This document shows, in pieces, positions 21,805-37,986 of a DNA stretch of 64,000 nucleotides (position 1 is its first letter; each line of letters starts with the position of its first letter). The notes below the pieces were generated by a model. It was not told the origin of the DNA and searched no databases. It saw only the letters and a program-made list of their open reading frames with translations. The stretch covers positions 1 through 64,000 of the forward strand of contig NZ_SPMY01000017.1 in NCBI RefSeq assembly GCF_012939955.1, given 5' to 3'. The stretch is from Candidatus Accumulibacter phosphatis (lineage in GTDB: Bacteria; Pseudomonadota; Gammaproteobacteria; Burkholderiales; Rhodocyclaceae). The translations under genes were made by a program, and so were the position numbers.

Positions 21805-21817
21805 TGGCGCCACGCAC

Positions 21818-21923: not shown

Positions 21924-21947
21924 CGTAGGTCTGCTTTCCGGCCATTA

Positions 21948-22106
21948 AGGCGATTGCCGGAAAAGAACGTACCAGATTGCGCCGGATTTTCGGTCGTCTT
22001 CAAGGCGCGACAACAGGCGCATAGTCGAACTATGTAACTGTTGTTGTAACACAGAAGACGGGCGAAAAGACAAGCAAGATGGTATGCTATTTGACAGAAA
22101 TCGCCT
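21948..22106 (-). repeat. 159-bp palindromic element, copy A (inverted relative to B and C)
   Basis: It begins AGGCGATT and ends AATCGCCT, an 8-bp terminal inverted repeat. Read leftward it matches copies B and C almost base for base. Nested inverted repeats fold the whole unit: GTCTTC/GAAGAC, CGACAACAG/CTGTTGTtG-type arms, and a CATAGT-TCG-ACTATG tip. It starts 16 bases past the DUF2917 stop, between convergent genes. It has no coding capacity. It could serve as a bidirectional terminator or be a MITE-like mobile repeat. Confidence 0.85.
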
Positions 22107-22121
22107 AAGCCCCCGGCCTTC

Positions 22122-22469
22122 CTAGCCGGCAAGAGGCGACTCGGGGTGAAGCAGGCGGCGGTCGAGCTGTGGCGAAGGCTGACGCCGCTGCCAGATCTCC
22201 TGCAGCGGAGCGAGCAGCAGCCGCTGCCAGGGCTTCACCGCCGGCTCGAAGCGGACGCGCCCGTCGCCGATCGCCTCCAGCAAGGCGAGACCATGACCCT
22301 CTACCAGATGGCTCTCACCCGCGGCGAGCAGGAAATCCCCGGCTTCGCCTTCGACCGTCAGCCAGACCCGGCCAGCGGTGCAGCGGATACGCACGCCCTT
22401 GGCAGACATCAGTCTGACCGGTGCGTTGTGGGCGAGATACAGCTCGCTGTTGTACAAATCAAAGTCCAT
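22122..22469 (-). CDS. DUF2917 domain protein
   Basis: 115 residues from the ATG at 22469 (MDFDLYNSELYLAHNAPVRL). The longer frame from 22562 would run into the divergent promoter and is rejected. The beta-rich core IRCTAGRVWLTVEGEAGDFLLAAGE is the DUF2917 signature, with a cupin-like look and the usual GRVWLT motif. Function is unknown. It is divergent from the MocR regulator 153 bases away, so it is a plausible target of that regulator. Confidence 0.8.
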   Translation of the reverse strand: MDFDLYNSELYLAHNAPVRLMSAKGVRIRCTAGRVWLTVEGEAGDFLLAAGESHLVEGHGLALLEAIGDGRVRFEPAVKPWQRLLLAPLQEIWQRRQPSPQLDRRLLHPESPLAG

Positions 22470-22622
22470 GGCCAACTCCCGTGTTTCTGTTCTGATGAGA
22501 CACAGTGTAGGGCAGCGGGCCTTGATAAAACAGTGACAACTTGGCAGAATTGTGACCAGCACAGTTCGCCTGATTACGAATTGTACCGATCAAGATTCGC
22601 AACAACTGTATTGGTGAAACCC

Positions 22623-24041
22623 ATGCAACATGAACTCATGCGCTACGAACGACTGGCCGAGGATCTGAGCAGCATCATCGCCGGCGGCAATCTGCGCCCG
22701 GGCGAACGCCTGCCCTCGGTGCGGCGTCTGTCGCGCGAGCGGCAGCTGTCGGTGTCGACGGTGCTGCAGGCACTGCATCAGCTTGAAGATCGCGGACTCG
22801 TCGAGGCCCGCCCACAGTCCGGCTATTTTGTCCGCCATGCACCTGCGCCCCACGAACAGCCGAACGCGCGCTCGACCCCCGAGGAAGCAGTACCGGTAGA
22901 TGTCAGCCAGCGCCTGATGCGGGCTCTGCAGACCGGCAACAAGCCGGGCGTCGCGCCGCTGGGCGCCGCCCTGCCCGCGTCCACCCTGCTGCCACTGGCA
23001 GCGTTGCAGCGGCTCTACGGCAGCGTCGCGCGGCGTCACCCGCGCCTACTCGAAGGCGCCAGCCACATCAACATGGACGAGGCGGCGCTGATCCGTCAGC
23101 TGGTGCTGCGCTCGGTCGGCTGGGCCGGGCCGCTGGCGGCCGAAGAGTTCGTGATCACCAACTCCTGCACCGAAGCCCTGGGACTCTGCCTGCGCGCGGT
23201 AACCGATCGTGGCGACACGGTGGTCGTCGAATCCCCGAGTTATCACCTGATGCTGCAGTTGCTCGAAACGCTGGGGCTGAAAGCCCTGGAGATCCCAACC
23301 GATCCGCGCACCGGCCTGTCGATCGAGGCGCTCGATCTGGCCACCCGAGACGGCCAGGTAAAGGCCTGCCTGCTGGTGCCCAACGCCAGCAACCCGCTCG
23401 GCAGCATGATGCCTGACGAGAACAAGCGCCGACTGGCAAAGCTGACCGCCGAACGCGGCGTAGCGGTGATAGAAGATGACATCTACGGCGATCTGTACTT
23501 CGGTAATAAACCGCCGCGACCGATCAAAGCTTTCGACAAGGCGGGAAATGTGCTGCTCTGCTCGTCCTTTTCGAAGTCGCTGTCACCTTCGCTGCGCCTC
23601 GGTTTCGTCGCCGCCGGCCGCTACCGGCGGCAGGTCGCGCTGCACAAGACGGTGAGTAGCGGCGGCACCAATCCGATCACCCAGATGGTCGTCGCCGAGT
23701 ACCTCGAATCGGGCTCCTACGATCGTCACCTGCGTGGCCTGCGACGTACCTACGAGCGCCAGGTCGACGCCATGCGCGCGGCGGTGGGCCGACACTTCCC
23801 GCCAGCGACGCGCATGACGCAACCGCTGGGCGGCTTCGTGCTGTGGGTCGAACTGCCCGACAAAGTGGACACCACCGCACTCTACGACCGCGCCATCGCG
23901 GCCGGCGTCGCCTACGTGCCCGGAGAACTGTTCTCGGCCAGCGGCATGTACCGCAACTGCCTGCGACTCAACTGCGGCAACCCGCATACGCCCGAGATCG
24001 AGAACGCCGTTCGCCGCCTCGGCGAACTGATGGCGGCGTGA
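22623..24041 (+). CDS. MocR/PdxR-type GntR regulator with aminotransferase domain
   Basis: 472 residues. An N-terminal GntR winged helix (LAEDLSSIIAGGNLRPGERL, PSVRRLSRERQLSVSTV) precedes a fold-type I aminotransferase domain. The PLP lysine is in SSFSKSLSPSLRLG, and NPLGSMMPDENK and DDIYGD contact PLP. Such regulators sense PLP or amino-acid derivatives instead of catalysing transamination. The ATG at 22623 was chosen because the winged helix begins ~10 residues later. Divergent DUF2917 is the likely first target. The pair is enclosed by palindromic elements A and B. Confidence 0.92.
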   Translation: MQHELMRYERLAEDLSSIIAGGNLRPGERLPSVRRLSRERQLSVSTVLQALHQLEDRGLVEARPQSGYFVRHAPAPHEQPNARSTPEEAVPVDVSQRLMRALQTGNKPGVAPLGAALPASTLLPLAALQRLYGSVARRHPRLLEGASHINMDEAALIRQLVLRSVGWAGPLAAEEFVITNSCTEALGLCLRAVTDRGDTVVVESPSYHLMLQLLETLGLKALEIPTDPRTGLSIEALDLATRDGQVKACLLVPNASNPLGSMMPDENKRRLAKLTAERGVAVIEDDIYGDLYFGNKPPRPIKAFDKAGNVLLCSSFSKSLSPSLRLGFVAAGRYRRQVALHKTVSSGGTNPITQMVVAEYLESGSYDRHLRGLRRTYERQVDAMRAAVGRHFPPATRMTQPLGGFVLWVELPDKVDTTALYDRAIAAGVAYVPGELFSASGMYRNCLRLNCGNPHTPEIENAVRRLGELMAA

Positions 24042-24702
24042 ACTCTGGCGCCGCTGCACTGCCGACTCCAGGCCGCAAGTCGCGCAAAATCGCGGCAAAA
24101 AAACATGCCGATGCGGCTTTCGCAGCACCGGCACCCAATGGCGCCAGCAACAAGACGAAAACACAGCCTCTTGCGCGGCCCACACCCTCCTCCTTTGCTA
24201 TCGACAACGGCCAGGTCAGACGCATCCTGCCAGGCAGCCAGCGCCCATCCCGATTGCTTAGGCGATTTCTGTCAAAGAACATACCATCTTGCTTGTCTTT
24301 TCGCCCGTCTTCTGTGTTACGACAACAGTTACATAGTTCGACTATGCGCCTGTTGTCGCGCCTTGAAGACGACCGAAAATCCGGCGCAATCTGGTACGTT
24401 CTTTTCCGGCAATCGCCTTATTGTTTTCAGGTGCACGGAATGAGCGGCCGAGCTTCTTTAAGCAAACTTCATACCACAACGACAAGCGACTGCTTTATTG
24501 CTTATTCCCGTGCGCGCCAGGGACACGGCTGTAAAATTTCTCGACAGTGCTTTCCCCGCTCGCCGCTTCTTGCCGTCAAAGCCGGTGCCGCCAGACTCAC
24601 GGCCACCGCGAGCGCAGCGCTCGGCCAGCAAAAGGGGCAATCCGTAGTGCTAAGATGCTGCCCAGTCCAAACTCCGAAAAAACCCACCCAGAGAGGAAGC
24701 GC
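24042..24702. other. Intergenic interval upstream of metY
   Basis: 661 bases without a credible gene. It contains palindromic element B (24260-24418). The stretch before it holds no recognised sequence. The stretch after it must hold the metY promoter. I did not recognise a SAM or SAH riboswitch in front of metY. Confidence 0.5.
24260..24418 (+). repeat. 159-bp palindromic element, copy B
   Basis: AGGCGATT (24260-24267) to AATCGCCT (24411-24418). Internal symmetry in order: CGTCTTC, CGACAACAG, CATAGT, loop TCG, ACTATG, CTGTTGTCG, GAAGACG. The outer arms TTTTCG/CGAAAA and ATACCAT/ATCTGGTA-like also pair. It differs from copy C at only a few positions. With copy A it brackets the DUF2917-MocR pair in inverted orientation. 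Flanks of A and B share GCTT before and TA after the element; no clear target duplication is seen. Confidence 0.88.
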
Positions 24703-25986
<1,284 letters not shown>

Positions 25987-26075
25987 CCAGGCCACGCCAT
26001 CCGGCCATGCGCGCCTGATATTAGGGCGTTTTCTCGCGCGCATCGGCCAGAATTCTGGAGTAGGATAGGAGCATC

Positions 26076-27011
26076 TTGTTGCACGCACACCGCCCGCTGA
26101 TGCCCGATAGCCCGTTCCGCCTGCCACTTGTCGATCTCTGCGCCGATGACGCGGAGATCGGACGCTATGCGGCACTGCTCGACAACCTGGGGATCGGGCT
26201 GCTGGTTTTCAACGCCGACGGCGGCTTGCAACTACGTAATCCGCAGGCCAGCAGCTTGCTCGGCGATGCGGAAACACGGTGGGAAGACGAGAACGGCACT
26301 GCGCTGAGCACCGACCAGCGTCTCGAAATGCGGGTCTTGCGCACCCGGAAAGCCATCTGGCAACAGACCCTCGGAATCAAACTGGAGGCCTCGGCAGCCG
26401 CCATTTGCTGCAACGCCAGTGCCTTCCCGGTGTTGGCAGAAGATGGCAGCCTGCGCTGCGTTCTGCTGACGCTGAGCGAGCTCACCGAGCATCCGAAGCA
26501 AACCAACGAAGCCCCGCAACGCGCAGCACACAACCCACTCACGGGAGTTTACCCGCAGGCTGATATCCTGCACTTGCTCGCCGACGAGGGCCGCCGCGCG
26601 ACGCGTTATGGGACGCCGTTCTCACTCGCCCTGATCGGCATCGACCACTTCCCGGAGTTGTGCAGGGCGCGCGGCGCGCAAGCCGGCGAGCGCGCGCTGG
26701 CCGACATCGGCCAGCTATGTGGTGAAAGTCTGCGTGATGCCGATATGGTCGGGCGCTTCCGCGCCGACAAGTTCTTGCTGATCCTGCCTAATGTGCGCGT
26801 CAACGACGCCACCATCGGCCTCGAACGCCTGCGTGAACTGTTCGAAACGCGGCATGCGAGTGCTGACGCCGAGCCCTTGACGATCAGCGGAGGCGTCAGC
26901 GAATTTACCGGCGAGGACTCCGCGGCGCTGATCGAACGCGTCCGCTCGCTGCTCGCCGCAGCCCGTGACGCCGGTGGCAACCGGCTCTGCGTCAACCTCG
27001 ATTTCTTTTAG
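26076..27011 (+). CDS. PAS protein with degenerate (non-catalytic) GGDEF domain
   Basis: Up to 311 residues: a PAS-like N-terminal half (LLDNLGIGLLVFNADGGLQL) and a C-terminal GGDEF fold (NPLTGVYPQADILHLL; FSLALIGIDHF). The catalytic motif is replaced by RADKF at 229-233, so cyclase activity is not expected. Such domains can bind nucleotide or interact with partners instead. TTG at 26076 or 26079 lies 4-7 bases after AGGAG; an ATG at 26100 is the alternative. Transcription ends near a double hairpin shared with convergent zapE. Confidence 0.78.
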   Translation: MLHAHRPLMPDSPFRLPLVDLCADDAEIGRYAALLDNLGIGLLVFNADGGLQLRNPQASSLLGDAETRWEDENGTALSTDQRLEMRVLRTRKAIWQQTLGIKLEASAAAICCNASAFPVLAEDGSLRCVLLTLSELTEHPKQTNEAPQRAAHNPLTGVYPQADILHLLADEGRRATRYGTPFSLALIGIDHFPELCRARGAQAGERALADIGQLCGESLRDADMVGRFRADKFLLILPNVRVNDATIGLERLRELFETRHASADAEPLTISGGVSEFTGEDSAALIERVRSLLAAARDAGGNRLCVNLDFF

Positions 27012-27016
27012 AGAGC

Positions 27017-27105
27017 CGGGGAGTTCAGGGAGCAGCATGCTCCCTGCCCGGCGAACGATTCCGGCGCGCAAGCCGGAATGTGCACTGCAAGAGGAGGGGT
27101 GGTCA
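27017..27105. repeat. Double-hairpin intergenic repeat, inverted copy of 28468-28545
   Basis: Two neighbouring palindromes, CAGGGAGCA-gca-TGCTCCCTG and ATTCCGGC-gcgca-GCCGGAAT, lie between the convergent 3' ends of the GGDEF-like gene and zapE. The same pair recurs in inverse order at about 28475-28542, beyond the 5' end of zapE. No T-tract follows, so terminator function is only possible. Confidence 0.7.
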
Positions 27106-28215
27106 GGACAGATGCGGCAGGCCGAGATATTCGCGGGAGCGCATTTCGGTCAGTCGGCTGGCGGTGCGGAAGAACTCGCTGGCCTGCGTACCCTCGGTAT
27201 AGAGTTCATCCGGCCCGCAGTCGGCAGTGGCGATCAGCTTGACCTTGTGATCGTAAAAAATATCCACCAGCCAGGTAAAGCGCCGCGCCTCGGAGGCCAT
27301 GCTCGACGACATCCGGGGAATCGCCGACATCAGCACCGTGTGGTAGCTGAGCGCCAGTTCGAGGTAATCGTTCTGCGAACGCGGCCCGCCGCACAGTGAC
27401 TTGAAGTCAAACCAGATGACGCCGTTGCCACGCCGCACGGTCGGGATGTCGCGACCAAGAATCTCGACGCTGCCGCCAGCCGCCCCCGCCCCGGCCGCGA
27501 TGCTGGTGAAATACTCGGCCATCTTCGACTCGGCGGCGGCATCGGCCGGGCAGTGGAAAATTTCCACTTGCTCAAGCGTCCGCAGCCGGTAGTCGACACC
27601 GGAATCAATCTCCAGCACGTCCATGCGCGAGTTGATCAGGGCAATGGTCGGCAGAAAATTCTCGCGCTGCAGGCCATTCGGATAGAGCCGGTCGGGCGGG
27701 TAGTTGGAGGTCATCACGAAAACCACACCGCGTTCGAAAAGAGCTTCGAGCAAACGCCTGAGGATCATCGCATCGGCGATATCGGAAACGTGGAACTCGT
27801 CAAAACAGAGCAGCCGCAGCTCGGTGGCAATGCCTTCGGCCAGCCTGGCCAGCGGATCTTTTTCACCCTTCAATTGCTTGAGCTGGCGATGGACGTCGTG
27901 CATGAAAGCGTGGAAATGTACCCGCCGCTTGCGGCGATAAGGGACTGCATCGTAAAAGCAGTCCATCATGAAGCTCTTGCCGCGACCGACACCGCCCCAG
28001 AAATACACGCCCCTCGGCACTGGCGGTGGCGCAAGGAAACGTCGCAGCTTGTTGCTGCGCCCGACCTTGAACGACAGCAGCTCGTAGTACAGGCGCTGCA
28101 AGCGCTCGGCAGCCGTGCGTTGGGCGACATCGGCGATGAACTTGCGCGACGACAGCACGCGCTCGTAAGCGTCGAGCATGCCACGTTCGGGAACCTTGAG
28201 AATTCTGTGAGGCAT
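27103..28215 (-). CDS. zapE: ZapE (AFG1-like cell-division ATPase)
   Basis: 370 residues from the ATG at 28215 (MPHRILKVPERGMLDAYERV). P-loop: YFWGGVGRGKSFMMD; Walker B: LLCFDEFHVSDIADAMIL; sensor: VVFVMTSNYPPDRLYPNGLQR. These are the ZapE/AFG1 signatures. The family acts on the Z-ring late in division and in some cases on membrane-protein turnover. The longer frame to 28260 adds a non-conserved stretch. It is flanked on both sides by inverted copies of the double-hairpin repeat. Confidence 0.95.
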   Translation of the reverse strand: MPHRILKVPERGMLDAYERVLSSRKFIADVAQRTAAERLQRLYYELLSFKVGRSNKLRRFLAPPPVPRGVYFWGGVGRGKSFMMDCFYDAVPYRRKRRVHFHAFMHDVHRQLKQLKGEKDPLARLAEGIATELRLLCFDEFHVSDIADAMILRRLLEALFERGVVFVMTSNYPPDRLYPNGLQRENFLPTIALINSRMDVLEIDSGVDYRLRTLEQVEIFHCPADAAAESKMAEYFTSIAAGAGAAGGSVEILGRDIPTVRRGNGVIWFDFKSLCGGPRSQNDYLELALSYHTVLMSAIPRMSSSMASEARRFTWLVDIFYDHKVKLIATADCGPDELYTEGTQASEFFRTASRLTEMRSREYLGLPHLS

Positions 28216-28423
28216 CAGCGCCTTTCCGGTACGCACAGGCCAGCAGGCCAGCCCTGGCACCTGACTCGTTGGGCGGCGAGGCAGTGGTCAGCTCGGGCTG
28301 CTCAACTCTTCTGCGCCGCACGCCGCCCACTGCGGCGATGCCGATATTCTAAAGCATCAACGGCGATACGTCAGAATCGAGCACCAGCCGAAGCGCTTCG
28401 GGAAGCGCTGGTTCACTAGCGGT
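28216..28423. other. Intergenic upstream of zapE
   Basis: About 200 bases that should include the zapE promoter (leftward). No ORF or RNA gene was recognised. It runs into the composite repeat that begins near 28424. Confidence 0.4.
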
Positions 28424-28620
28424 CATGACACGGCGAGATACCTCGGATCATGAAAGTCATGACCGCCCCCCCTCCACTTGCAGTGCGCATTCCGGCTTGC
28501 ACGCCGGAATCGTTCGACGAGCAGGGAGCATGCTCCCTGAATTCCCCCGCCTCACCCCCGGCCCTTCTCCCGCAAGGGAGAAGGGAGGTTCGTGAGTCGC
28601 TTGCGCGACTTTCACATTAA
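28424..28620 (+). repeat. Composite intergenic repeat (family R2 copy 1 plus inverted double hairpin)
   Basis: Left part: GATCATGAAAGTCATGACCG, shared with 35047-35085 and 45043-45085. The middle is the inverted copy of the 27017 double hairpin. The right part has CTTCTCCC...GGGAGAAGG followed by GTGAGTCGC-ttgc-GCGACT-TTCACATTAA. The last TTA (28617-28619) supplies the stop codon of queD, so the repeat sits exactly on its 3' end. Confidence 0.8.
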
Positions 28621-29060
28621 CCGCGCACCGCCTCCGCCCAGCAGTTGGGCGTCTCGTAGAGGCGCACGCGCTCGAGGCGCAACTGATTGCCGTAGCTGTC
28701 GCGATAGACCGCGTCGAGAATCGTAAACGCTTGCTGGGCAAGGTTCTCGGCCGTCGGCACGCAATCGAGCAGTACGGTCTTGTGGTCGGGTAAGGAGTGC
28801 AGGAAGTCGACCACCACTTGGTCGTCTGCCCAGGCGAGAAAGGCATGATCCCAGAGGTCAACCAGATGCCGCATGGCCAGCGCCTTCACTTCGGAAAAAT
28901 CCATCACCATGCCGTTGGCCGGATCACCCGTCTGCTGAATGATCGCACCGCCAAGCGTGATCTCGAGCGCGTAGCGGTGACCGTGCAGGTGACGACACTG
29001 GCTCTTGTGGTCGGGAATGCGGTGGCCTGCGTCGAACTCCAGGCGGCGGGTGATAAGCAT
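28617..29060 (-). CDS. queD: 6-carboxytetrahydropterin synthase family protein (QueD)
   Basis: 147 residues. Zinc ligands and catalytic Cys are visible in FDAGHRI and CRHLHGHRY; the conserved PTAENLA and the Glu in LYETPNCWAE complete the active site. It would turn dihydroneopterin triphosphate into 6-carboxytetrahydropterin, the second step toward queuosine/7-deazaguanine. No other que gene is in the window. The stop codon lies within a repeat. A PTPS-like pterin enzyme of other role is less likely because the CxxxHGH motif is present. Confidence 0.93.
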   Translation of the reverse strand: MLITRRLEFDAGHRIPDHKSQCRHLHGHRYALEITLGGAIIQQTGDPANGMVMDFSEVKALAMRHLVDLWDHAFLAWADDQVVVDFLHSLPDHKTVLLDCVPTAENLAQQAFTILDAVYRDSYGNQLRLERVRLYETPNCWAEAVRG

Positions 29061-29182
29061 CTAAAAAAACGCGAAGAAAAGAGCCGCGATTATAGCACCG
29101 GCGAGCTCGCCCTCCGGGCATGAGAGCACCACCACGGTCGGCGTAAAACGTCCGCACCCGCGCCGCCAGCTGGCGCCGCCAC

Positions 29183-29620
29183 TCACTCGTGAACAGTGAT
29201 CGGCAGCGCTGCCATTTCCTTGTACAGCAGCGCCAGCGGCGGCTTGCGTGAAATGGTGATGATCCGCGTCCCCGGCGGGTAAATCAGATGATAAGTGAGG
29301 AACATGTAGGCATCACCAGGACCGAGCAGCAACTCGCGCAAGGCGGCGTAACCGGGATGCCCGAGAACATTCATCTCGGCGTATGTCCGCTGGTTGAGCC
29401 GTACGCAGCGTTCGCCAAGCTCGAGCTGGGGCTGCTGCGCGCTGAGCAGTTCGTGGGTCAGAAGGCGCCGAATGTCGGGCAGGACGACAACGCCGACACT
29501 GTCGGCGCCAAGCAGCCATTCGACCGCCCGGCCTTCGCCGCCGGGATCAGGCGCATGGTCACCAAAAGCCTGGCACCAGCGGGGAATAAAGGCCGAATAG
29601 CGGCGAATGCTTTTTTCCAT
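29183..29620 (-). CDS. Uncharacterised protein downstream of the CBS gene
   Basis: 145 residues from the ATG at 29620 (MEKSIRRYSAFIPRWCQAFG). Soluble, no signal peptide or helix long enough for membrane insertion; features include GPGDAYMFLTYHLIYPPGTR. I do not recognise the family. Its start lies 12 bases after the stop of the CBS gene, so it is likely the last gene of the DUF1538/PII-like/CBS operon and may take part in the same process. Confidence 0.65.
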   Translation of the reverse strand: MEKSIRRYSAFIPRWCQAFGDHAPDPGGEGRAVEWLLGADSVGVVVLPDIRRLLTHELLSAQQPQLELGERCVRLNQRTYAEMNVLGHPGYAALRELLLGPGDAYMFLTYHLIYPPGTRIITISRKPPLALLYKEMAALPITVHE

Positions 29621-29632
29621 GACTGGCAAACT

Positions 29633-30028
29633 CTAGGTTTCTTTTGCGGCCCGTTCGATGAGACTGCCGACGACATCGGTATCCGAGACGAAGCCCTGCA
29701 GATCATTGTTGTCGATGACCAGCACGCTCTTCACCGCGTACTGGATCATCAGCCGCGCCAGGTAGCGCACTTCCAGGTGTTGCGAAACCTGTAGCGCCGG
29801 CTTCTGCGCGATGTCATAGACGTTGAGCAGGTCGATGTCGCCATCGTCGGCAATGACCGCTCTGGCGACGTCGCGATAGGCGATCAAACCATAAGCATCA
29901 CCCGAGTGACGCTTCTCGACAACCAGCGATTTGACTCCGCGCTCCTTCATCATCATCAGCGCCTCGCGGACGGTAGCCAGCGGGTTGATGGTGATGACGC
30001 TTCTTTTCATGATTCCGGCAACCAGCAT
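29633..30028 (-). CDS. Tandem CBS-domain protein
   Basis: 131 residues consisting of two CBS motifs: IMKRSVITINPLATVREAL..MMKERGVKSLVV and KPALQVSQHLEVRYLARLM..AVKSVLVIDNNDLQGFVSDTDVV. Such pairs bind adenine nucleotides and report energy state. It lies 70 bases after the PII-like gene in the same direction as the DUF1538 membrane protein. A role in gating or sensing for that transporter is an inference from position. Confidence 0.9.
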   Translation of the reverse strand: MLVAGIMKRSVITINPLATVREALMMMKERGVKSLVVEKRHSGDAYGLIAYRDVARAVIADDGDIDLLNVYDIAQKPALQVSQHLEVRYLARLMIQYAVKSVLVIDNNDLQGFVSDTDVVGSLIERAAKET

Positions 30029-30098
30029 TGCTAGAACTCCTTCACTTGATGACCAGGGTCAGAAATCGAAAAACACCGGGGCCACGAGGCACAGCGAC

Positions 30099-30446
30099 TC
30101 ACAAGCCCTCTTCGACCTCACGGCGAAACAGCTTCATCTGCTCCAGCCCGATTCCGACGACGCTACCCAGCGCTATCGAAAAAGCCAGGCCGCCGCCGGG
30201 AAGATCGAGCTTCATCTGCAACTTGACCGCCCGCAGGATACGCATCGCCAGTTGCTGTTCAGTGACGCACAGCAGCAGGGACTCCTTGCGCTCCAGACCG
30301 AGGCCGAGAAAGGTCTTGCGTTCATTGTGCCGCAAGCCCTTGCCCTTGATGATCGTAAAGCCGGTCGCTCCGGCCTGCTGGAGCAGTTCAACCGCTCTGT
30401 TTTCGTCCTCGTCGGGAACGATCAACACGACAGCAGAGAATTTCAT
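30099..30446 (-). CDS. PII-like (GlnB-fold) small regulatory protein
   Basis: 115 residues from the ATG at 30446 (MKFSAVVLIVPDEDENRAVEL). The ferredoxin-like pattern with AVELLQQAGATGFTIIKGKGL and RKESLLLCV fits the PII superfamily, but the T-loop lacks the canonical uridylylated Tyr region and the sequence is not GlnB or GlnK. Its ATG overlaps the DUF1538 gene stop by 4 bases, as AmtB-GlnK pairs are coupled. It probably binds a nucleotide and regulates the membrane partner. Confidence 0.8.
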   Translation of the reverse strand: MKFSAVVLIVPDEDENRAVELLQQAGATGFTIIKGKGLRHNERKTFLGLGLERKESLLLCVTEQQLAMRILRAVKLQMKLDLPGGGLAFSIALGSVVGIGLEQMKLFRREVEEGL

Positions 30447-31945
30447 GAAGTTTGCTCCTTGACGGGTTTTCTTGACTTCTGCAGCAAGGTGGCGATGATG
30501 CCGTAGGACATGACAATAATCATCGGTGTTAATGAGGCGAAGGCAATCAGACCGAAGCCGTCGATCATCGGGTCCCGCCCCGGGGTGCGCTCGGCCAGCC
30601 CGACACCGAGTGCGGTGACCAGGGGCACGGTCACCGTCGACGTCGTCACGCCCCCGCAATCGAAGGCGATCGGAATGATAAAACGCGGCGCGAGCTTGGT
30701 CATGGCGATCACCAGCAGGTAACCGGGGATCAGCCAATAGGCAATCGGGGTCCCGTCTACGATGCGCGCACAGCCGACGACCAGGCCGAAGCCGACACCG
30801 ATGGAAACCAGAGAGCGCAGCCAAAAGCCCTTCAACTGGCCCAGGCTGACTTCGTCGGCCTTGATCGACAGCGCAATCAACGCCGGCTCGGCCATGGTCG
30901 TCGCGAAACCGATCAGAAAGCCGTAGAGATAGAGCACCCACATCGCCGCGCCGTCCTGCATCAGGCCACGGGTCATTTCGTCACCAAGCGGGAAGAGACC
31001 GATTTGCAGGCCTTCGTCGAACAGGTACAGGCCGACGGCGACGAAGAGCATGCCGACTGCCAGACCCTTGGGGTCGGCAAGCGGCCGCCGCAGAACGACA
31101 AAGCTCGCAAACAGGACCACGGCGATGATCGGCAAGAGGTTCTTGACCATGTTCAGAAAGCTGAGGAGCATCTCCACGGGGCCGAAGTGATGCCCGTCCA
31201 TGGTGGGCATGATCAACACTGCGGTGCCGGCTGTAGCAGGGACAAAAAAGAGGATGCCGTAGAGCTGAATGATGATCATCGGCGCCAGCGCACCGAAAGC
31301 GATCAGACCGAAGCCATCGAGCATTGGATTGCGGCCACGAATGGTCGCCGCCAGGCCCACACCCATGGCAGTCAGCAGCGGCGCAGTGACCGTGGAAGCG
31401 ACGACGCCGCCCGAATCGAAGGCCAGGCCGACCAGCTCCGGAGGCGAAAGCGCAGTCAGGCCAACGACGATCAGATAGCCCGGAATCAGGTAGAGAGCGA
31501 TCGGATGGCCGAGCACGATGCGCCAGACGCCAACCATGATCGCCAGGCCGACGGCGAGGGCAGCCACCATGCGCAGGGTCGTTGCCCCCATGCTCCCGCC
31601 GGAAACTGCCTCAGCTTTGTAGGCCACGGCCATCAGTGCCGGCTCGGCGGCGACCGAAGCAAAGCTGATGCAAAAGGCAAAAGCCATTAGCCACAGAAAG
31701 GAGCCGCGGCGGGCAAAATCGAATGCCATCGTCTCACCGGCCGGAAAAATCGCGGCGTCCAGCCCTTTGACAAACAGTGCCAGTCCGATGAGGACCGCGG
31801 CAAATCCACCGACCAGAGCACCCAGGCTGTCGGGCATGCGCTGGATGAAAAACCACTGGAAGATGGCGACAACGATCAGCGTCGGCGCCAGGTCTCGCGC
31901 AGCTTCTTGCAGGAGTTCCCGGATCAGGCGTAGCAGCGACCCCAT
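30443..31945 (-). CDS. DUF1538 membrane protein (duplicated, probable transporter)
   Basis: 500 residues with about 12-14 helices arranged as two homologous halves: GLIAFGALAPMIIIQLYGI and GLIAFASLTPMIIVMSYGI, LAFDSGGVVASTVTAPLLTA and IAFDCGGVTTSTVTVPLVTA, and AEPALMAVAYKA and AEPALIALSIKA. The pseudo-twofold repeat and conserved small/polar residues suggest a transport path. The family is a DUF with no established substrate. It heads an operon with PII-like and CBS regulators, so a nucleotide-controlled ion or metabolite transporter is a reasonable inference. Confidence 0.85.
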   Translation of the reverse strand: MGSLLRLIRELLQEAARDLAPTLIVVAIFQWFFIQRMPDSLGALVGGFAAVLIGLALFVKGLDAAIFPAGETMAFDFARRGSFLWLMAFAFCISFASVAAEPALMAVAYKAEAVSGGSMGATTLRMVAALAVGLAIMVGVWRIVLGHPIALYLIPGYLIVVGLTALSPPELVGLAFDSGGVVASTVTAPLLTAMGVGLAATIRGRNPMLDGFGLIAFGALAPMIIIQLYGILFFVPATAGTAVLIMPTMDGHHFGPVEMLLSFLNMVKNLLPIIAVVLFASFVVLRRPLADPKGLAVGMLFVAVGLYLFDEGLQIGLFPLGDEMTRGLMQDGAAMWVLYLYGFLIGFATTMAEPALIALSIKADEVSLGQLKGFWLRSLVSIGVGFGLVVGCARIVDGTPIAYWLIPGYLLVIAMTKLAPRFIIPIAFDCGGVTTSTVTVPLVTALGVGLAERTPGRDPMIDGFGLIAFASLTPMIIVMSYGIIATLLQKSRKPVKEQTS

Positions 31946-32346
31946 GCGCGCTAGGTCGCCGCAACCGCCGGCAGCGGGCGGCTCGGCAGTGGCGAGAGGG
32001 GACGACGTGCTTGGCTCATCGGCTCAAAATAAAAGAAAAAAAAAGCTGTGCGGGCTATCGTCGTCATAGAGGCAGATGATGCCGCAGATCGCTCCACACG
32101 GCAAGGCTGTCGGCATGAAAAGACGAACGCGGAGGCCGAGTTCATGGGTGCGAACGCAAAACGGCTGTGCCACCAAGCTCAATGCAAAGGACATGCAGCC
32201 GCGCAGCGCGGCGAAGCGCAGTACAGCGAAGCCCGTGCGGCGGCAAATCGCCTGCGCAAGCGGAGCGCAGGCCGACCCCAAAGGCGAGCCGGCCAGCAGA
32301 GAAGAAGCTCGGCAGCCCGCCGCCTCACCTCGTCAGGCCGACCAAC
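31946..32346. other. Gene-free interval between CoA-transferase 3' end and DUF1538 operon
   Basis: 401 bases. It must contain the promoter of the leftward DUF1538 operon, probably in the AT-richer stretch around 32030-32045 (a run of A with a single break). The rest is GC-rich, with several GCGAAGCGCAG-like partial repeats, and holds no convincing ORF. Confidence 0.4.
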
Positions 32347-34351
32347 TCATGGCCCGCGGAAATGCCCTTGTGCCTCGGCCTCACTGGCGAAGACCTGCGC
32401 TGCCACTTGCCGCTTCTCGAACTCCTCGGCCAGTTTCATGCGCAGGAAAGTGCTCGAGGTGTAGCGGGTGACATCGTGGTAGTGACGATCCATCAGATCC
32501 TTGACCATAGCGATGTAGGGGTCGACCAGTTCCGGCAAAATCGAGAAGCGGTCGTAATTGACGATCGTCTTGACCTTGTGAGCGAGCGGTGCCAACTGCT
32601 TTTCGACAGCTTGCCGAATCTCCTCGATCTCCGCTGCGCTGCGTACGCTCAAGCCGGAAAAATCGATGAAAAACAGGTTCTTGTTGGCGTCATACGAGAG
32701 GCGCTCGCTCATCGGCATGGCCAGCAATTCCTGGCGCAGCTGCATCGGGTCGTCGCTGAAAATGCGCGCCTCCATCAGCGCCGGAGCCCCGCGCATCACC
32801 GGCGTGAAGTCCATCCGGTCGAGAATGTCCTTCTGCAAGTCCACCCCCGGCGCGATCTCGACCAGTTCGAGTCCTTCGGCACAGAGGCGAAAAAACGCAA
32901 CGCTCGGTGATGTAGAGCACTGGCTTGTTCCACTTGACAGCCTGCTCGCCGCTGAAAGTGCGGTGTTCGACGGCAGCGACGAATTTCTTCGCCTTGCCGT
33001 CTTCGAGAATGCGCAGTTTGCCGTCTTCGACCATCACGTCCAGTGTACCCGCCGTAAAGGTGCCGACGAAAACCACTTTCTTGGCGTTCTGCGAGATGTC
33101 GATGAAGCCACCGGCGCCGGCCAGACGTGGACCAAACTTGGAAACATTAAGGTTGCCTTCGCGGTCAGCCTGGGCCAGGCCCAGGAAAGCGATATCAATG
33201 CCACCGCCATTATAGAAATCGAACTGGCTGGGCTGATCGATAATCGCCTGGGCATTGACGGCCGCACCGAAGCTGAGCCCACCGGCCGGGATGCCGCCGA
33301 TAACACCGGGCTCGGCGGTCAACGTCAGCAGGTCGATGACCTGCTCCTCGGCGGCAACATTGGCCACCCCCTCGGGCATGCCAATACCCAGGTTCACCAC
33401 CGCGTTGGTGCGCAGTTCGAGCGCTGCGCGCCGGGCAATGATCTTGCGCTCGCTCATCGGCATGGTCTCTATGGCCGACATCGGCACTTTGATCTCGCCA
33501 GCGAAAGCCGCACTGTACTGCTCGACAAAGGTCTGCATGTGGTACTCGGGCTTTTCGGCGACCACCACGCAGTCAACCAGAATACCGGGGATCTTCACCT
33601 GACGCGGGTTCAAGGTGCCGCGCTCGGCAATACGCTCGACCTGCACGATGACAATGCCGCCCGAGTTCCTGGCGGCCATGGCAATGGCCTGCGCTTCCAG
33701 CGTCAGCGCCTCACGTTCCATGGTGACGTTGCCGTCAGGGTCGGCAGTGGTGCCGCGAATGATTCCGACGTGGATCGGAAAGCACTTGTAAAACAGGTAT
33801 TCCTCGCCATCGATCTCCATCAGGCGGACGATGTCAACAACCGTCTTCTCGTTCAGCTTGCCGCCGCCAAAACGCGGGTCGACAAAAGTGCCGAGTCCGA
33901 CACGGGTGATCGTTCCCGGCTTGCCTGCCGCGATGTCGCGGAACATGTGCGTAATCACACCCTGTGGCAGGTTATAGGCCTCAATACTATTGGAGACCGC
34001 AAGTCGCTGCATTTTGGGAACCAGGCCCCAGTGACCACCGACAACACGCTTCAGCAAGCCATGATGGCCGAAGTGATTGAGGCCGCGCTCCTTACCGTCG
34101 CCCTGCCCGGCGGCATAGAACAGCGTCAGATCACGTGGGCTGCCGAGGCCGGAAGCGTCGCTTTCGGCCGCCTCGAGAAAGCGCTGCTCGAGAGCCACGG
34201 CAATGTTCTCGGCAAAACCGATGCCGACGAAGCCGCCGGTGGCGACGGTATCGCCGTCATTGATGAGACCCACCGCGGCGCGGGCCGAAACAACCTTGCC
34301 GGTATCGGAAACGCGCAGCGAGGCGGCCATGGGGTGACGATCAAGCGACAT
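32347..34351 (-). pseudogene. Propionate/acetate CoA-transferase (Pct/YdiF type), frameshifted
   Basis: The first frame (34351 to about 32896) and a second frame (about 32889 to 32347) together make one ~667-residue CoA-transferase. It has [45 protein letters not shown] and the catalytic Glu in [12 protein letters not shown]. The first frame ends ...YITERCVFS and the second resumes [15 protein letters not shown]. The shift falls in six A at 32890-32895; five would restore the frame. It would swap CoA among short acyl acids. True loss, sequencing slip or slippage cannot be told apart here. Confidence 0.88.
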
Positions 34352-34449
34352 GCGCTTCTCCTATGCTGGATGAGGTTGGCCGGCGATTGCAGCAAAGCCG
34401 GCGAGGAAAATGGTGATAGTACGACACGTTGCGGCCCACATCGGGTCGC

Positions 34450-35049
34450 TCAGAAAGGCATTTCGGGAACAAGCGGGCCAAGATCATCTTCTCGCCCGAC
34501 GTCACGTACCAGCCTGGCGGCGAGTTTGGCGTCAAAATTGACCAGACGTTCGACGACCTCCGCGACCTGTTGCGGACACGCCGCGTGATGACAGGCCATT
34601 CCCCACAGGTAGTAAGCCTCGGCATGCATCGGTTGCAGTTCGACCGCGTGCGCAAACGCTTCGGCCGCTGCGGCGTGTTCGCCGAGACGAGCATGCGCCA
34701 GCCCGCTTCCGTACCACGCACGATCGAGCGCCGGCTTGCGGCGCAGCGCCGCGGAGAACGCAGCAATTGCCGCGCGCGAAGAGCCCGCCTGCTCAAGGAC
34801 GAAACCATGGTTGTAATGCAGCTCAGCATCGTCAGGCGCCAGGCGCAGACATTCGACAAACCATTTGTCGGCCGCCGCGTAACGCTTGCTCTCGGCCGCG
34901 ATAAACGCCAGATGACGTGCCGACGGCAGGTCGTCGGGCTGCAAACGATGGGCGACCAGATACTGGGCAAAGGCTTTTTCGTCGCGCCCGCAGAGGCGCC
35001 ACAGCCAGGCCCGGGCATAATGTCGCCGATACTCAAAATTAACGCTCAT
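34450..35049 (-). CDS. TPR-repeat protein
   Basis: 199 residues from the ATG at 35049. TPR units are visible at DAELHYNHGFVLEQAGSSRA, DRAWYGSGLAHARLGEHAAA and AEAYYLWGMACHHA. The N-terminus (YRRHYARAWLWRLCGRDEKA) also looks TPR-like. No catalytic domain. Its start codon lies in the first bases of an R2 repeat copy, so its 5' signals are repeat-derived. It lies 98 bases upstream of the CoA-transferase in the same direction. Confidence 0.8.
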   Translation of the reverse strand: MSVNFEYRRHYARAWLWRLCGRDEKAFAQYLVAHRLQPDDLPSARHLAFIAAESKRYAAADKWFVECLRLAPDDAELHYNHGFVLEQAGSSRAAIAAFSAALRRKPALDRAWYGSGLAHARLGEHAAAAEAFAHAVELQPMHAEAYYLWGMACHHAACPQQVAEVVERLVNFDAKLAARLVRDVGREDDLGPLVPEMPF

Positions 35050-35175
35050 GACAGTCGAGATCCCTGGACCATGAAAGTCATGATCGTCCCCCTCTTCACT
35101 TGCCGTACGCCGTCCCTTCTCCCGCAGGGTGGAGAGGGGGAATTCGTGAGTCGCTTGCGCGACTTTCACATTAAT
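35047..35175 (+). repeat. Intergenic repeat R2, copy 2
   Basis: Contains GTCGAGATCCCTGGACCATG and AAAGTCATGAtCG at the left, CCCTTCTCCCGCAGGG in the middle and GTGAGTCGC-ttgc-GCGACT-TTCACATTAA at the right. This is the same order as at 28424 and 45043. It separates the TPR gene (-) from the small membrane protein (+), so it fills the divergent promoter interval. Confidence 0.8.
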
Positions 35176-35222
35176 CTGCAGACACCACCGCAGCAAGACC
35201 GAGTGGATAGCGCGAAATTACC

Positions 35223-35528
35223 ATGAGCCACCCCGATCTGTTTGTCGTCTCCATCTTGCGTGCCCTGGTCGAGGTCGCCCTGCTCTCGCTGCTCGGGCAA
35301 GGTGCAGTCGCACTTCTCGCTGGCGCCAGACGTGCCAGCAACCCGATCTATCGGCTGTTCGAGGTCGTCACCCGACCGGTTCTTGGCGTCTGCCGCCGGC
35401 TAACACCGAAAGTGGTCATCGACCGGCACCTCCCCTTCGTTGCCTTTTTCCTGAGCTTCTGGCTGTGGATCGTGCTCGCCTACGTCAAGCGCATGCTCTG
35501 CGAGCTGCACGGCCTGAGTGCTTGCTGA
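35223..35528 (+). CDS. Small membrane protein, unknown
   Basis: 101 residues with two hydrophobic stretches, ALVEVALLSLLGQGAVALLAG near the N-terminus and LPFVAFFLSFWLWIVLAYV near the C-terminus. A basic linker (RLFEVVTRPVLGVCRRLTPK) lies between. I do not recognise a named family with confidence; it is only loosely YggT-like. Palindromic element C follows 15 bases after its stop. Confidence 0.7.
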   Translation: MSHPDLFVVSILRALVEVALLSLLGQGAVALLAGARRASNPIYRLFEVVTRPVLGVCRRLTPKVVIDRHLPFVAFFLSFWLWIVLAYVKRMLCELHGLSAC

Positions 35529-35542
35529 AGTGCCAAAGACCA

Positions 35543-35701
35543 AGGCGATTTCTGTCAAATAACATACCATCTTGCTTGTCTTTGCGCCCGTCTTCTGTGT
35601 TACGACAACAGTTACATAGTGCGACTATGCGCCTGTTGTCACGCCTTGAAACCGACCGAAAATCCGGCGCAATCTGGTACGTTCTTTTCCGGCAATCGCC
35701 T
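35543..35701 (+). repeat. 159-bp palindromic element, copy C
   Basis: AGGCGATT (35543-35550) to AATCGCCT (35694-35701), the same length and internal order as copies A and B. Several differences fall at unpaired or edge positions (for example CATAGT-gcg-ACTATG at the tip). It fills the gap between two convergent genes, 15 bases after one stop and 32 before the other. Confidence 0.88.
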
Positions 35702-35732
35702 GAAGAGTCGCGTGCCAGGAGTCAAAACCGCC

Positions 35733-36560
35733 TCAGTTGGTCCACACCGGCTGGCTCAAACGCCGCCGCAGGTCATCGGGTATCGGCTCGATCTTCAGAC
35801 GGTTGTATTGGTCGGCAATGCGCTGATAGGTGCCGTCCGCCTTCACTTCCTCAAGGGCCTTTTGCCATTTCTGCACTTCCGCGTCGGGCAGGTCTTTCGA
35901 GCCGGCGAGGTAGATCCCGCTCTCGCGCACGATCTCGCCGAAGTTGAGCGCGTCGAGGTTGCCGCCGACCTCGCGCATGCCGTAGATGATCATCAGCCGC
36001 GGTGCGAGCCAGGCGTCGATTCGCCGTTGCTGCATCTGGCGCGCGTTCATCCACTCCTCATGATGGGGCCGGATACGCTTGAAGCCGCGCTCTTCGAGCA
36101 GCGCTTCGGCGCCAGAGTTGCTGAGCACGCCGATTGGGCGATCCTTGACCTTGTCGAGGCTAGCCACGTCGATGCCGGCGCCGCCGACGACAACCAGATC
36201 GTCGGTGTAGAGCTTTGCCAGCCAGCTGTACTTGTCTTCCCGCTCGGGACTGCGGGTCAGGGCCAGGATGCCGATGTTCGGCTGCGTCTGAGCGATGCGC
36301 TGCGCTGCGTCCCAGGGCATGAACTCGATGACGCCGCTGTGGCCGGCGCGCTTGGCCATCTCGCTCACCAGCTCATAAACGAAGCCTTGCTTGACGCCAG
36401 GCGTCTCGGTAACGCTGACTGGCGGGATCTGAAAAGTGTAGGGCGGAAGCTCTGCAGCCAGCAAACGCAGCTCGTCCGCCCTCGCCACCGCCTGCGCTTG
36501 CACGCCGGAGTGCGGCGCCAGGGCAAACAGGGCGGCAAGGAAAACGAAAAGAATGCGCAC
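35733..36560 (-). CDS. SBP_bac_3 periplasmic binding protein linked to a GntP-like permease
   Basis: 275 residues from a GTG at 36560; AGGAG seven bases upstream decides this start over the longer ATG frame. Signal peptide: ILFVFLAALFALAPHSGVQA. The mature part follows the amino-acid-binding fold (ELPPYTFQIPP, VYELVSEMAKRAG, IGVLSNSGAEALLEERGF). It starts 11 bases after the end of the GntP-like gene. No ABC permease or ATPase is nearby, so its partner is unclear. It could serve as a sensor or as an auxiliary binding protein. Confidence 0.88.
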   Translation of the reverse strand: MRILFVFLAALFALAPHSGVQAQAVARADELRLLAAELPPYTFQIPPVSVTETPGVKQGFVYELVSEMAKRAGHSGVIEFMPWDAAQRIAQTQPNIGILALTRSPEREDKYSWLAKLYTDDLVVVGGAGIDVASLDKVKDRPIGVLSNSGAEALLEERGFKRIRPHHEEWMNARQMQQRRIDAWLAPRLMIIYGMREVGGNLDALNFGEIVRESGIYLAGSKDLPDAEVQKWQKALEEVKADGTYQRIADQYNRLKIEPIPDDLRRRLSQPVWTN

Positions 36561-36571
36561 GTGCGTTCTCC

Positions 36572-37986
36572 TCAAAAAGTGCCGAACATGCCGTCGAGAA
36601 TGATCACCAGAATCATCGCGATCAGCGGGAAAGCAACGGCGACCATGAAGATGTCGAAATACGACTGCTTGTGGTTCAGCCTGCAAATGGCCAGCAGGGT
36701 GATCACCGCGCCGTTGTGCGCGGCAACGCGTCGAGGCCTCCGGAAGCGAGCGCGGCAACGCGGTGCAGGATTTGCGGGGAGATGCCGGCCGCCTGCGCCA
36801 GCTCAAGGTAGGTCTGCCCGACCGCCTGCAGCGCGATGCTCATGCCACCGGAAGCCGATCCGGTAATGCCGGCGAGCACGTTGACCACGATCGCCAGCCC
36901 GATTATCGGATTGTCGGTGAGCGACATCAGCCAGTCCCTGATGATCAGGAACGACGCCAGGCTGGCGATCACCCCGCCGTAGGCGACCTCGGAACCGACG
37001 TTGAGAATCGGCAGCATCGAACCGAGCGCGCCATCGGTCAGCGATTGGCGAACGTTGCTGAAACGCTTCCAGGTCAAGGCAATCAGCACCATGCACGCGA
37101 TCAGCATTGCGAGAATGATCGCCCAGGTGCCGCCGACAGCGGAAACCGTCGTCTTGCCGTACTTCGGCAGCGCCAGGTAGTCGGTGTCCATGGCCGGGAT
37201 AACGTACTTGCTGAAAATGAAGTTGAGTACCAAGACCAGAATAACCGGGATGATCGCCACGCCGAACGACGGCATGTCACCGGCGGGTGTCGACGTTGGC
37301 TCACCCGCGACGGCCGCCGGCTCGTCTTCACCGTAGCCTTCGCCGGCATTGCGCGCGCGCCGCGCACGCATCATCAGCCAGGCGCTGCCGCAGCCGAACA
37401 TTAGCAGCCCGGCGATGACACCCAATCCCGGCGCGGCGAAGGCGTCGGTATGAAAATACGGCATCGGGATGGCGTTCTGGATCGCCGGCGAACCGGGCAA
37501 TGCCGACATCGTAAAGGTGAATGAGCCAAGGGCGATGGCCGCCGGGATCAGTCGCTTGGGCAGGTTGCCTTCACGGAACATCTGAATGGCGACCGGGAAC
37601 ACCGCGAAAGCAACGACGAAAAGCGAGACGCCGCCATAGGTGAGGACGCCGCAGGCGAGGATGATGGCGATGATCGCCCGTTCCTTGCCGGTCCACTCGA
37701 CGATCTTGTGGGCGATGGTCCGTGCGCAACCGGAGTCATCCATCAGCTTGCCGAAGACCGCGCCGAGCAGGAACAGCGGGAAGAACTTGATCAGGTAATT
37801 GCCCAGTGCGGGCATGAAGACCTGCGTGTAGGTGGCGATGATCGGCGCATCAAGCCCGCCGAAGAGCAGCCCGACCATGGCACAGATCGGCGCAATGATG
37901 ATCACGTTCCAGCCGCGATAGGCGAGAACGATCAGCAGCACCAGCGATAGTACAATCCCCAGGATACCGAACACAGGCACCTCCAT
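36572..37986 (-). pseudogene. GntP-family permease, frameshift near the 3' end
   Basis: The first frame gives 427 residues of a gluconate/citrate-type permease (GNYLIKFFPLFLLGAVFGKLM, TYGGVSLFVVAFAVFPVA, ALPGSPAIQNAIPMPYF, GITGSASGGMSIAL) and ends GGLDALPRTTAR. Shifting frame near 36716-36724 restores HNGAVITLLAICRLNHKQ and a final helix ending at a stop at 36572. Two extra bases in CCGCGCACAACGG, or one missing, explain it. It imports a carboxylate or sugar acid by H+ symport if functional. Loss of the last helix would probably inactivate it. Confidence 0.85.

What the first reader, a model, noticed from the sequence alone, without database searches (positions are those of the whole stretch)
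21948..35701. Family of three 159-bp palindromic elements at gene 3' ends
Copies at 21948-22106, 24260-24418 and 35543-35701 are exactly 159 bp, nearly identical, begin AGGCGATT and end AATCGCCT. The whole unit folds as nested stems: CGTCTTC/GAAGACG, CGACAACAG/CTGTTGTCG, CATAGT/ACTATG around a 3-base loop. Two copies start 15-16 bases after a stop and lie between convergent genes. Precise length plus terminal inverted repeats suggest a non-autonomous mobile element; placement suggests use as a bidirectional terminator or mRNA-end stabiliser. I do not recognise the sequence.
Basis: partly seen in the sequence, partly recalled or inferred. Interest (0 to 1): 0.7.

Follow-up and report, generated by a model that had tools for sequence, protein, structure and literature searches.

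The report
Stop-codon-friendly hairpin mini-transposon
The three 159-bp repeats are copies of a tiny jumping DNA element that carries no transposase gene, is probably moved by transposases of the ISAzo13 type, and contains a hairpin core whose folded shape has been kept across many kinds of bacteria although its sequence has changed.

Summary
The true unit is 157 bp (GGCGATT...AATCGCC); the outer A and T belong to a 3-bp target duplication, TNA. The window's genome, a Candidatus Accumulibacter relative, holds 31 full copies; 24 of 31 have an exact TNA duplication, and one has a clean empty site in a relative. This is a MITE. Its probable partner is an ISAzo13-family insertion sequence: bounded copies are about 1.3 kb with TNA duplications, and in G011 and G712 their ends resemble the MITE's. 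In G675 they do not.

The less expected part is the core. A 58-pair structure shows strong covariation (183 two-sided cells against 53.3 +/- 6.3 shuffled), while two small internal loops stay nearly constant. A covariance model matches 35 of 369 gammaproteobacterial species genomes, with differing ends around one core.

Individual copies decay rather than being preserved, so the fold looks selected on the element, not on each host locus. Ten of 31 copies sit exactly in a stop codon, which the TNA duplication rebuilds. No terminator was found at the two copies scanned. What the core does remains unproven.

The parts
21949..22105 (+). MITE copy 1, 157 bp
   Evidence: R1 model 180.3 bits on + and 65.1 on -; 31-copy family
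21946..21948 (.). left target duplication TAA of copy 1
22106..22108 (.). right target duplication TAA of copy 1
22004..22008 (+). 5' side of lower conserved internal loop (G-GCG-C) of copy 1; 3' side at 22046-22050 (G-UAA-C in the family consensus)
   Evidence: loop columns conserved in A2 and A4
22016..22020 (+). 5' side of upper conserved internal loop, same motif, 12 nt further; 3' side at 22034-22038
24261..24417 (-). MITE copy 2, 157 bp
   Evidence: R1 189.1 bits on -
24258..24260 (.). target duplication of copy 2 (TTA on +, TAA in element orientation)
24418..24420 (.). target duplication of copy 2 (TTA on +, TAA in element orientation)
35544..35700 (-). MITE copy 3, 157 bp; flanking triplets TCA/TTG no longer match
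   Evidence: R1 172.1 bits
21250..21804 (+). yaeQ-like gene upstream of copy 1
   Evidence: PF07152, E=2e-76
22122..22562 (-). DUF2917 gene, convergent with yaeQ, ends 16 nt from copy 1
   Evidence: PF11142, E=1.9e-13
35223..35528 (+). YggT-like gene (below Pfam cut-off), ends 15 nt before copy 3
   Evidence: PF02325, E=4.4e-4, 21.1 bits against cut-off 27
35733..36806 (-). solute-binding protein gene, convergent, ends 32 nt after copy 3
   Evidence: PF00497, E=8.7e-10

Best explanation
The repeats are copies of a 157-bp MITE, most likely mobilised in trans by ISAzo13-family DDE transposases. The transposase would recognise terminal inverted repeats of about 25 bp (here GGCGATT...CATACCA), insert the element into TNA and duplicate those 3 bp. 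TAA and TGA are both stop codons and TNA sites, so insertion into a stop codon rebuilds it and leaves the protein intact; this explains the gene-end position. Between the ends lies a structured hairpin core found across Gammaproteobacteria, with covarying helices and nearly constant small internal loops (5'-GGCGC/5'-GYAAC twice, 12 nt apart), while the ends differ between genomes. Shown here by sequence: copies, target duplication, one empty site, similar IS ends in two genomes, covariation. Inferred: mobilisation in trans, and selection of the fold on the element rather than on each host locus. My best guess for the fold is a transcribed hairpin that makes insertions into 3' untranslated regions tolerable or processable, as proposed for NEMIS; this last step is weakly supported. 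The confidence below is for the MITE/ISAzo13 part; I lowered it slightly (from 0.82) after finding that the G675 elements do not share their genome's ISAzo13 ends.
For: 31 full copies, 24 of 31 with exact TNA duplication (14 TTA, 9 TAA, 1 TGA). Empty site: the copy in the TGA stop of a transglycosylase gene next to ffh is absent in relative G022, where the flanks join with one TGA. ISAzo13-family IS in Thiothrix: perfect 24-bp ends, TAA/TAA. ISAzo13 IS in Accumulibacter G011: TAA/TAA, ends GGCGATCTC/GGTGATTTCT...CATACC, 13 to 16 of 26 positions equal to the G011 MITE ends; of 116 TNAGG sites in 5 IS loci two score 16, next best 14. G712: IS and MITE share GGGCCRCGGAAA ends, 16 to 21 of 26 for the first copy, and the same start in all three further copies fetched. 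Model hits and PF07592 co-occur in 6 of 369 genomes (35 and 23 positive), Fisher p=0.014, p=1.6e-4 for hits of 60 bits or more, relatedness not corrected. Covariation: 38 of 58 pairs two-sided, 183 cells against 53.3 +/- 6.3; across 16 genomes 46 of 58, 187 against 62.2 +/- 6.3. 10 of 31 copies sit exactly in a stop codon, against 98 of 1463 (6.7%) non-coding-plus-stop TNA sites, p=2e-5.
Against: No intact ISAzo13 element was found in the window's own genome: one degenerate transposase with 3 in-frame stops and no end in the scan. Five of the ten genomes searched (G426, G427, G503, G630, G645) showed no PF07592 match. In G675, which has four ISAzo13 copies, none of the 8 elements fetched has their ends (4 to 8 of 24 positions; most begin TATACTTCGCGCGG or nearly so), so the core also travels with another type of ends, and one of the six co-occurrences does not support partnership. 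Only 8 of the 19 loci first taken from other genomes have equal TNA triplets at the model's borders. The stop-codon enrichment rests on a home-made gene caller; a cruder open-frame control over five genomes plus one copy elsewhere gave 29, 19 and 12 of 69 for offsets 0, 1 and 2, with 7, 7 and 2 in G428. No orientation bias toward the gene whose stop is used (8 same, 6 opposite, counted). G.U over A.C asymmetry is modest (30 against 14 pairs, p=0.023, not corrected for relatedness). Copies decay.
Confidence: 0.8

Rival explanations
1. The hairpin is a host-used bidirectional terminator or mRNA 3'-end stabiliser, retained because of that use.
For: Strong hairpin on both strands; position at gene ends.
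Against: No terminator-like site at copies 1 and 2 in the scan of 21700-24700. In the one shared insertion compared the element is 89.2% identical between two species, flanks 93-99%. Within the genome 52 changes break pairs and 51 keep them (28 of 31 copies). Only 4 of 28 genomes of the genus have a match.
Confidence: 0.15
2. The covariation comes from DNA processes: long palindromes are corrected arm to arm by template switching, so both arms change together without selection on any folded molecule.
For: Quasi-palindrome correction is known for bacterial inverted repeats (recalled). Both strands fold, and G.U over A.C asymmetry is modest.
Against: The mismatched columns of the two internal loops (G.A and C.A) are kept: majority base 0.83 to 0.96 per column in 48 copies and 0.93 to 1.0 in 15 rows from many genomes; correction should erase them.
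Confidence: 0.15
3. The core is recognised as single-stranded DNA hairpin or cruciform by the transposition machinery or a host DNA-binding protein, and the repeated loop motif 12 nt apart is the binding site.
For: Constant loops and spacing while ends differ; selection appears to act on the element.
Against: 59-bp end-only elements with TTA duplications exist in G503 (L184, L191), so the core may not be needed for transposition, though loss of the core after insertion is possible. The core model finds nothing in 8 ISAzo13 loci.
Confidence: 0.25

Closest known systems
ERIC/IRU, RUP and Correia/NEMIS small mobile sequences (PMC2229807, passages read)
   Same: 100-200 bp, terminal inverted repeats, target duplications, transcripts predicted to form long stem-loops; RUP shares ends with a resident IS (IS630-Spn1).
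   Different: Those are listed with a TA motif at their ends; here the duplication is TNA, the likely partner is ISAzo13, and one structured core is shared by elements with different ends in many families of a class.
MITEAba12 (PMC6382973, abstract and passages read)
   Same: A MITE matched to resident IS elements by its ends and target duplications; found in Acinetobacter and one Moraxella.
   Different: 9-bp duplications, partner ISAba12, weak predicted structure.
MITEs of Candidatus Thiomargarita nelsonii (PMC4853749, passages read)
   Same: Abundant palindromic repeats in a gammaproteobacterium that also encodes PF07592 transposases.
   Different: Its hupL MITE has 10-bp direct repeats, its dsrA MITE ends in TATAG; the name ISAzo13 does not occur in its main text. 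Its RepeatModeler families (supplement) were not seen.
CIR repeats of Caulobacter and Brucella (PMC2229807, passage read)
   Same: Phylogenetically conserved RNA secondary structure in an intergenic repeat.
   Different: Two arms with a linker, no terminal inverted repeats, GANTC motif.
REP/BIME with RAYT transposases (recalled)
   Same: Dispersed extragenic palindromes moved in trans.
   Different: Short hairpins with a GTAG-type foot and no TNA duplication; here DDE-type ends and duplications.

Membership tests
MITE (non-autonomous DDE-type element) | short, without a transposase gene, terminal inverted repeats | tested here: met
   157 bp, too short for a transposase; GGCGATT/AATCGCC ends. 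Coding potential was not scored separately
MITE (non-autonomous DDE-type element) | constant-length target site duplication | tested here: met
   3 bp TNA exact in 24 of 31
MITE (non-autonomous DDE-type element) | multiple dispersed copies and an empty site | tested here: met
   31 copies; empty site in G022 for the one insertion tested
ISAzo13-mobilised | ends and duplication shared with an autonomous ISAzo13 element of the same genome | tested here: inconclusive
   similar in G011 (15, 13, 16, 16 of 26) and G712 (16 to 21 of 26); different in G675; no intact partner found in the window's own genome
ISAzo13-mobilised | transposition in trans by that transposase | not testable with these tools
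   needs an assay
ISAzo13-derived by internal deletion | internal sequence derived from the IS | tested here: not met
   core model finds 0 hits in 8 transposase loci at E up to 1
ERIC / TA-type MITEs | 2-bp TA duplication | tested here: not met
   3-bp TNA in the window's family; the G675 elements look TA-type
known Rfam RNA family | match above gathering score | tested here: not met
   none at the elements (window 21000-36500; six loci: at the element of L162 only sub-threshold miRNA hairpin matches)
intrinsic terminator | GC-rich hairpin followed by a T-run | tested here: not met
   no site at copies 1 and 2; copy 3 not scanned
structured RNA element | covariation beyond shuffles on an alignment not built from the structure | tested here: met
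   A2 (48 rows found by BLAST, exact end pattern or sequence profile, aligned by MAFFT): 0 of 500 shuffles reach any measure. The shuffles do not correct for relatedness
structured RNA element | transcription and folding in the cell | not testable with these tools
   no RNA data here

The most novel reading that the evidence does not exclude
The core is an unrecognised structured RNA family of Gammaproteobacteria that has become a passenger of transposons: it keeps its fold and two identical, evenly spaced internal-loop binding sites while its terminal repeats come from whichever transposon moves it, ISAzo13 lineages with TNA targets in the window's genome and its kin, another, apparently TA-type, transposon in G675. 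It binds a conserved host or transposon protein in a way that promotes spread of the element. Stop-codon regeneration by TNA insertion gives it a safe landing site. (Probability raised from 0.35 to 0.4 because the G675 check, showed the core with a second type of ends.)
Probability: 0.4. Interest if true: 0.82.

Novelty: new variant of a known kind. Interest (0 to 1): 0.62.

Why it matters
Bacterial MITEs are usually seen as lineage-specific debris of one insertion sequence. Here one folded core recurs with different ends in many genera of a class, so something about the fold seems to have been worth keeping for the element. That makes a testable case of selection on RNA or single-stranded DNA structure in a transposon without a transposase gene. 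The stop-codon effect is a simple rule by which a transposon can insert into genes without harm.

Tried and rejected
IS5/IS1031 as partner (recalled TNA duplication): set aside, without a search, once ISAzo13 transposases were found between similar ends. An IS-sized pair of exact ends in G000, G011 and G022: none seen. Viral collection: 0 for three exact patterns; plasmids: 0 for the element. The plasmid hits that led to ISAzo13 were themselves chance-level (E=5); their value came from reading the place; the second such hit (Desulfosarcina) showed no transposase. Order-wide DNA search: 2 of 399, the window's own genome and a 27-base match taken as chance; only two candidates per genome were scored. 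Orientation bias to genes: none (8 against 6). A first G.U against A.C count (225 against 75) was biased, because the pair list left out conserved C.A positions; replaced by the test on Watson-Crick-consensus pairs (144 against 74 cells; 30 against 14 pairs). The stop-codon p-values (2e-9, 3e-9) counted four copies that only abut a TAG made at the junction; replaced by 10 of 31. Loops as a class are not more conserved than stems in A2 (0.83 against 0.86); only a set of loop positions chosen afterwards is (0.92 against 0.70 for one helix, with 3 of 18 rows dropped). Paper searches (listings, with passages of four papers read) showed nothing that I recognised as this element. L181 gene beside an end: caspase-like by my reading, not a transposase.
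Full report
Observation. The three repeats are real and in the stated places. Aligned in one orientation they stop abruptly at GGCGATT and AATCGCC, and flanks are unrelated. In the window's own genome (5.04 Mb, 149 contigs) the search lists 40 matches (40 of 52 candidates scored), of which 31 are full length; identity to copy 1 is 91-100%. In 24 of 31 the three bases just outside each end are identical: TTA 14, TAA 9, TGA 1; of the other 7, six differ at one base and copy 3 (TCA/TTG) at two.

Where it occurs. Named hits point to Candidatus Accumulibacter; that the window belongs there is inferred. In the genus 4 of 28 genomes have matches, with 31, 18, 16 and 1 listed. In 399 genomes of the order only two match, the window's genome and a 27-base match in another (two candidates per genome scored, so weak copies may be missed). 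In the Sedimenticola MAG most matches cover only the middle of the query; of nine copies aligned, four are readable at both ends, have other ends (GGGACTTGG...), and three of the four have equal TNA triplets.

Mobility. At the copy that lies in the TGA stop of a transglycosylase gene next to ffh, relative G022 has the two flanks joined with a single TGA. This was the one insertion tested for an empty site. A different insertion is shared by G000 and G022 (L029 and L047).

Partner. A 30-base end of a related element (G503) gave five plasmid hits at chance level (E=5); one, on a plasmid of Thiothrix fructosivorans, proved on reading to lie beside a PF07592 (ISAzo13) transposase in a 1.3-kb element with perfect 24-bp ends GGAACTGTCCCGAAATAACTTCCC and TAA duplications. 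In Accumulibacter G011 a PF07592 element (L199:935-2256, transposase in two frames) has TAA duplications and ends GGCGATCTC.../GGTGATTTCT...CATACC. Compared with the MITE ends of G011 these match at 13 to 16 of 26 positions; of 116 TNAGG sites in five IS loci two reach 16, the next is 14. Single ends of the same kind lie beside transposase fragments in G022 and G623 (18 and 19 of 26). In G712 the IS and one MITE share 16 to 21 of 26, and three further copies begin alike. A script over 30 transposase loci, asking for inverted ends beside TNAG, gave good pairs with equal TNA triplets in Thiothrix, G011, G563, G601, G533, G660, G753, G675 (two loci) and G712 (two overlapping loci), a weaker one in G673, and one G563 pair with unequal triplets; the remaining loci, many of them fragments, gave none or unconvincing pairs. 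PF07592 was found in 3 of 3 element-bearing Accumulibacter genomes tested, but was not sought in the rest of the genus; the window's genome has only a degenerate copy with 3 in-frame stops; 5 of 10 genomes tested lacked it. In one sample of 369 species of the class, 35 have model hits, 23 have PF07592, 6 have both (Fisher p=0.014; for the 16 genomes with hits of 60 bits or more p=1.6e-4; relatedness not corrected). Against: in G675, one of the six, none of 8 elements fetched has the ends of its ISAzo13 copies; most begin TATACTTCGCGCGG or nearly so. G606 has elements with both GGGNCTGTAAA- and GGCGATT-like ends. So ISAzo13 is the best-supported partner for the window's family, not for every element with this core.

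The core. I aligned 48 copies, chosen by me from the 74 non-redundant copies and 4 variants and found by BLAST, an exact end pattern or a sequence profile, and tested one structure of 58 pairs drawn from the window copy's fold: 90.5% of cells pair, 38 pairs have two-sided changes, 183 such cells against 53.3 +/- 6.3 in shuffles; sliding the partner by 1-3 columns leaves 40 to 70 such cells and 37 to 45% paired. RNAalifold on the same alignment predicted 37 pairs, 27 with two-sided changes. A model from this alignment hits 35 of 369 genomes of the class at E 1e-4 or better (only 8 candidates per genome scored; the weaker hits, many covering only part of the model, may include chance hairpins). 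A MAFFT alignment of 18 sequences from 16 genomes gives 46 of 58 pairs with two-sided changes, 187 cells against 62.2 +/- 6.3; 12 of these rows were found with the model, which favours pairing, and I left out 7 of the 19 other-genome loci (L158, L169, L171, L173-L176). The middle helix pairs at 9 of 9 positions in 13 of the 15 rows that align cleanly, with 13 different sequences, and at 6 or 7 of 9 in the 3 rows set aside. Beside it the motif 5'-GGCGC/5'-GYAAC occurs twice, 12 nt apart; its G.A and C.A columns keep their majority base at 0.83 to 0.96 in the 48 copies and 0.93 to 1.0 in the 15 rows. Arm-to-arm correction of the palindrome would erase such mismatches. Of the 19 other-genome loci, 8 have equal TNA triplets at the model's borders, allowing a shift of one base. 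No Rfam family covers the elements searched.

Which strand, which level. Among pairs with a Watson-Crick consensus G.U exceeds A.C at 30 pairs and the reverse holds at 14 (p=0.023), pointing weakly to the strand that reads GGCGATTGCC first (window: +, -, - for copies 1 to 3). Yet single copies do not look protected: within the genome 52 changes break a pair, 51 keep one, 16 fall outside pairs (28 of 31 copies, those of equal length), and the shared insertion differs by 10.8% between G000 and G022 while its flanks differ by 1-7%. I infer that selection acts on the element's spread or tolerance, not on each inserted copy. The second comparison rests on one shared insertion.

Why gene ends. With a codon-usage gene caller written for this purpose, 14 of 31 copies touch the end of a gene within 1 bp; in 10 the duplication is the stop codon itself (in two of these the other copy of the duplication has decayed), in 4 the TA of the duplication plus the G of the element makes TAG. 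Among non-coding-plus-stop TNA sites in the same DNA 98 of 1463 (6.7%) are stop codons; 10 of 31 against that gives p=2e-5. Because the duplication copies the target, an in-frame TAA or TGA there was the gene's stop before insertion. The cruder open-frame control over five genomes plus one copy elsewhere points the same way but weakly (29, 19 and 12 of 69 copy ends; 7, 7 and 2 in G428). Orientation to the gene is even (8 and 6). The caller's window genes are imperfect: it missed the DUF2917 gene beside copy 1, which Pfam supports.

Function. No terminator-like site was found at copies 1 and 2 (copy 3 not scanned). End-only elements of 59 bp with TTA duplications exist in G503 (L184, L191), so the core may be dispensable for transposition, or was lost later. 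Hairpins of NEMIS are proposed to be processed by RNase III in mRNAs (PMC2229807, passages read); a like role for inserted copies is my leading but weak guess. In closing: ordinary in being a MITE, less ordinary in its partner, its stop-codon landing and its class-wide folded core.

Noticed in passing
window 28592, 35146, 45134 (+) and 50975 (-): Another repeat, core GTGAGTCGCnnnnGCGACTTTCACATT, mostly after a CTCCCGC..GGGAGAAGGGAG stretch: 17 matches in 214 kb of this genome, which would extrapolate to hundreds per genome. Two MITE copies (L013, L021) are inserted at its ACATTA end.
   Followed up: partly
window 27034-27102 and 28466-28534: 69-nt inverted repeat pair, 91% complementary, 1363 nt apart; not identified.
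   Followed up: no
window 572-1691 and 3105-5250: Long tandem repeats with periods of 723 and about 864 bp, perhaps repeated protein domains; not tested.
   Followed up: no
L191:915-979, L184:484-548 (G503): Elements of 59 bp made of little more than the terminal repeats, with TTA duplications: end-only derivatives.
   Followed up: partly
L167, L248-L254 (G675); L169 (G791); L176 (G699): Model hits with quite different ends (TATACTTCGCGCGG.. in G675..ACTTCTCGCG.. or similar in the others), so the core also travels with another transposon type, not identified.
   Followed up: partly
L082:1253-1486 (Chromatiaceae MAG): A copy with an insert of about 80 bp in one arm.
   Followed up: no
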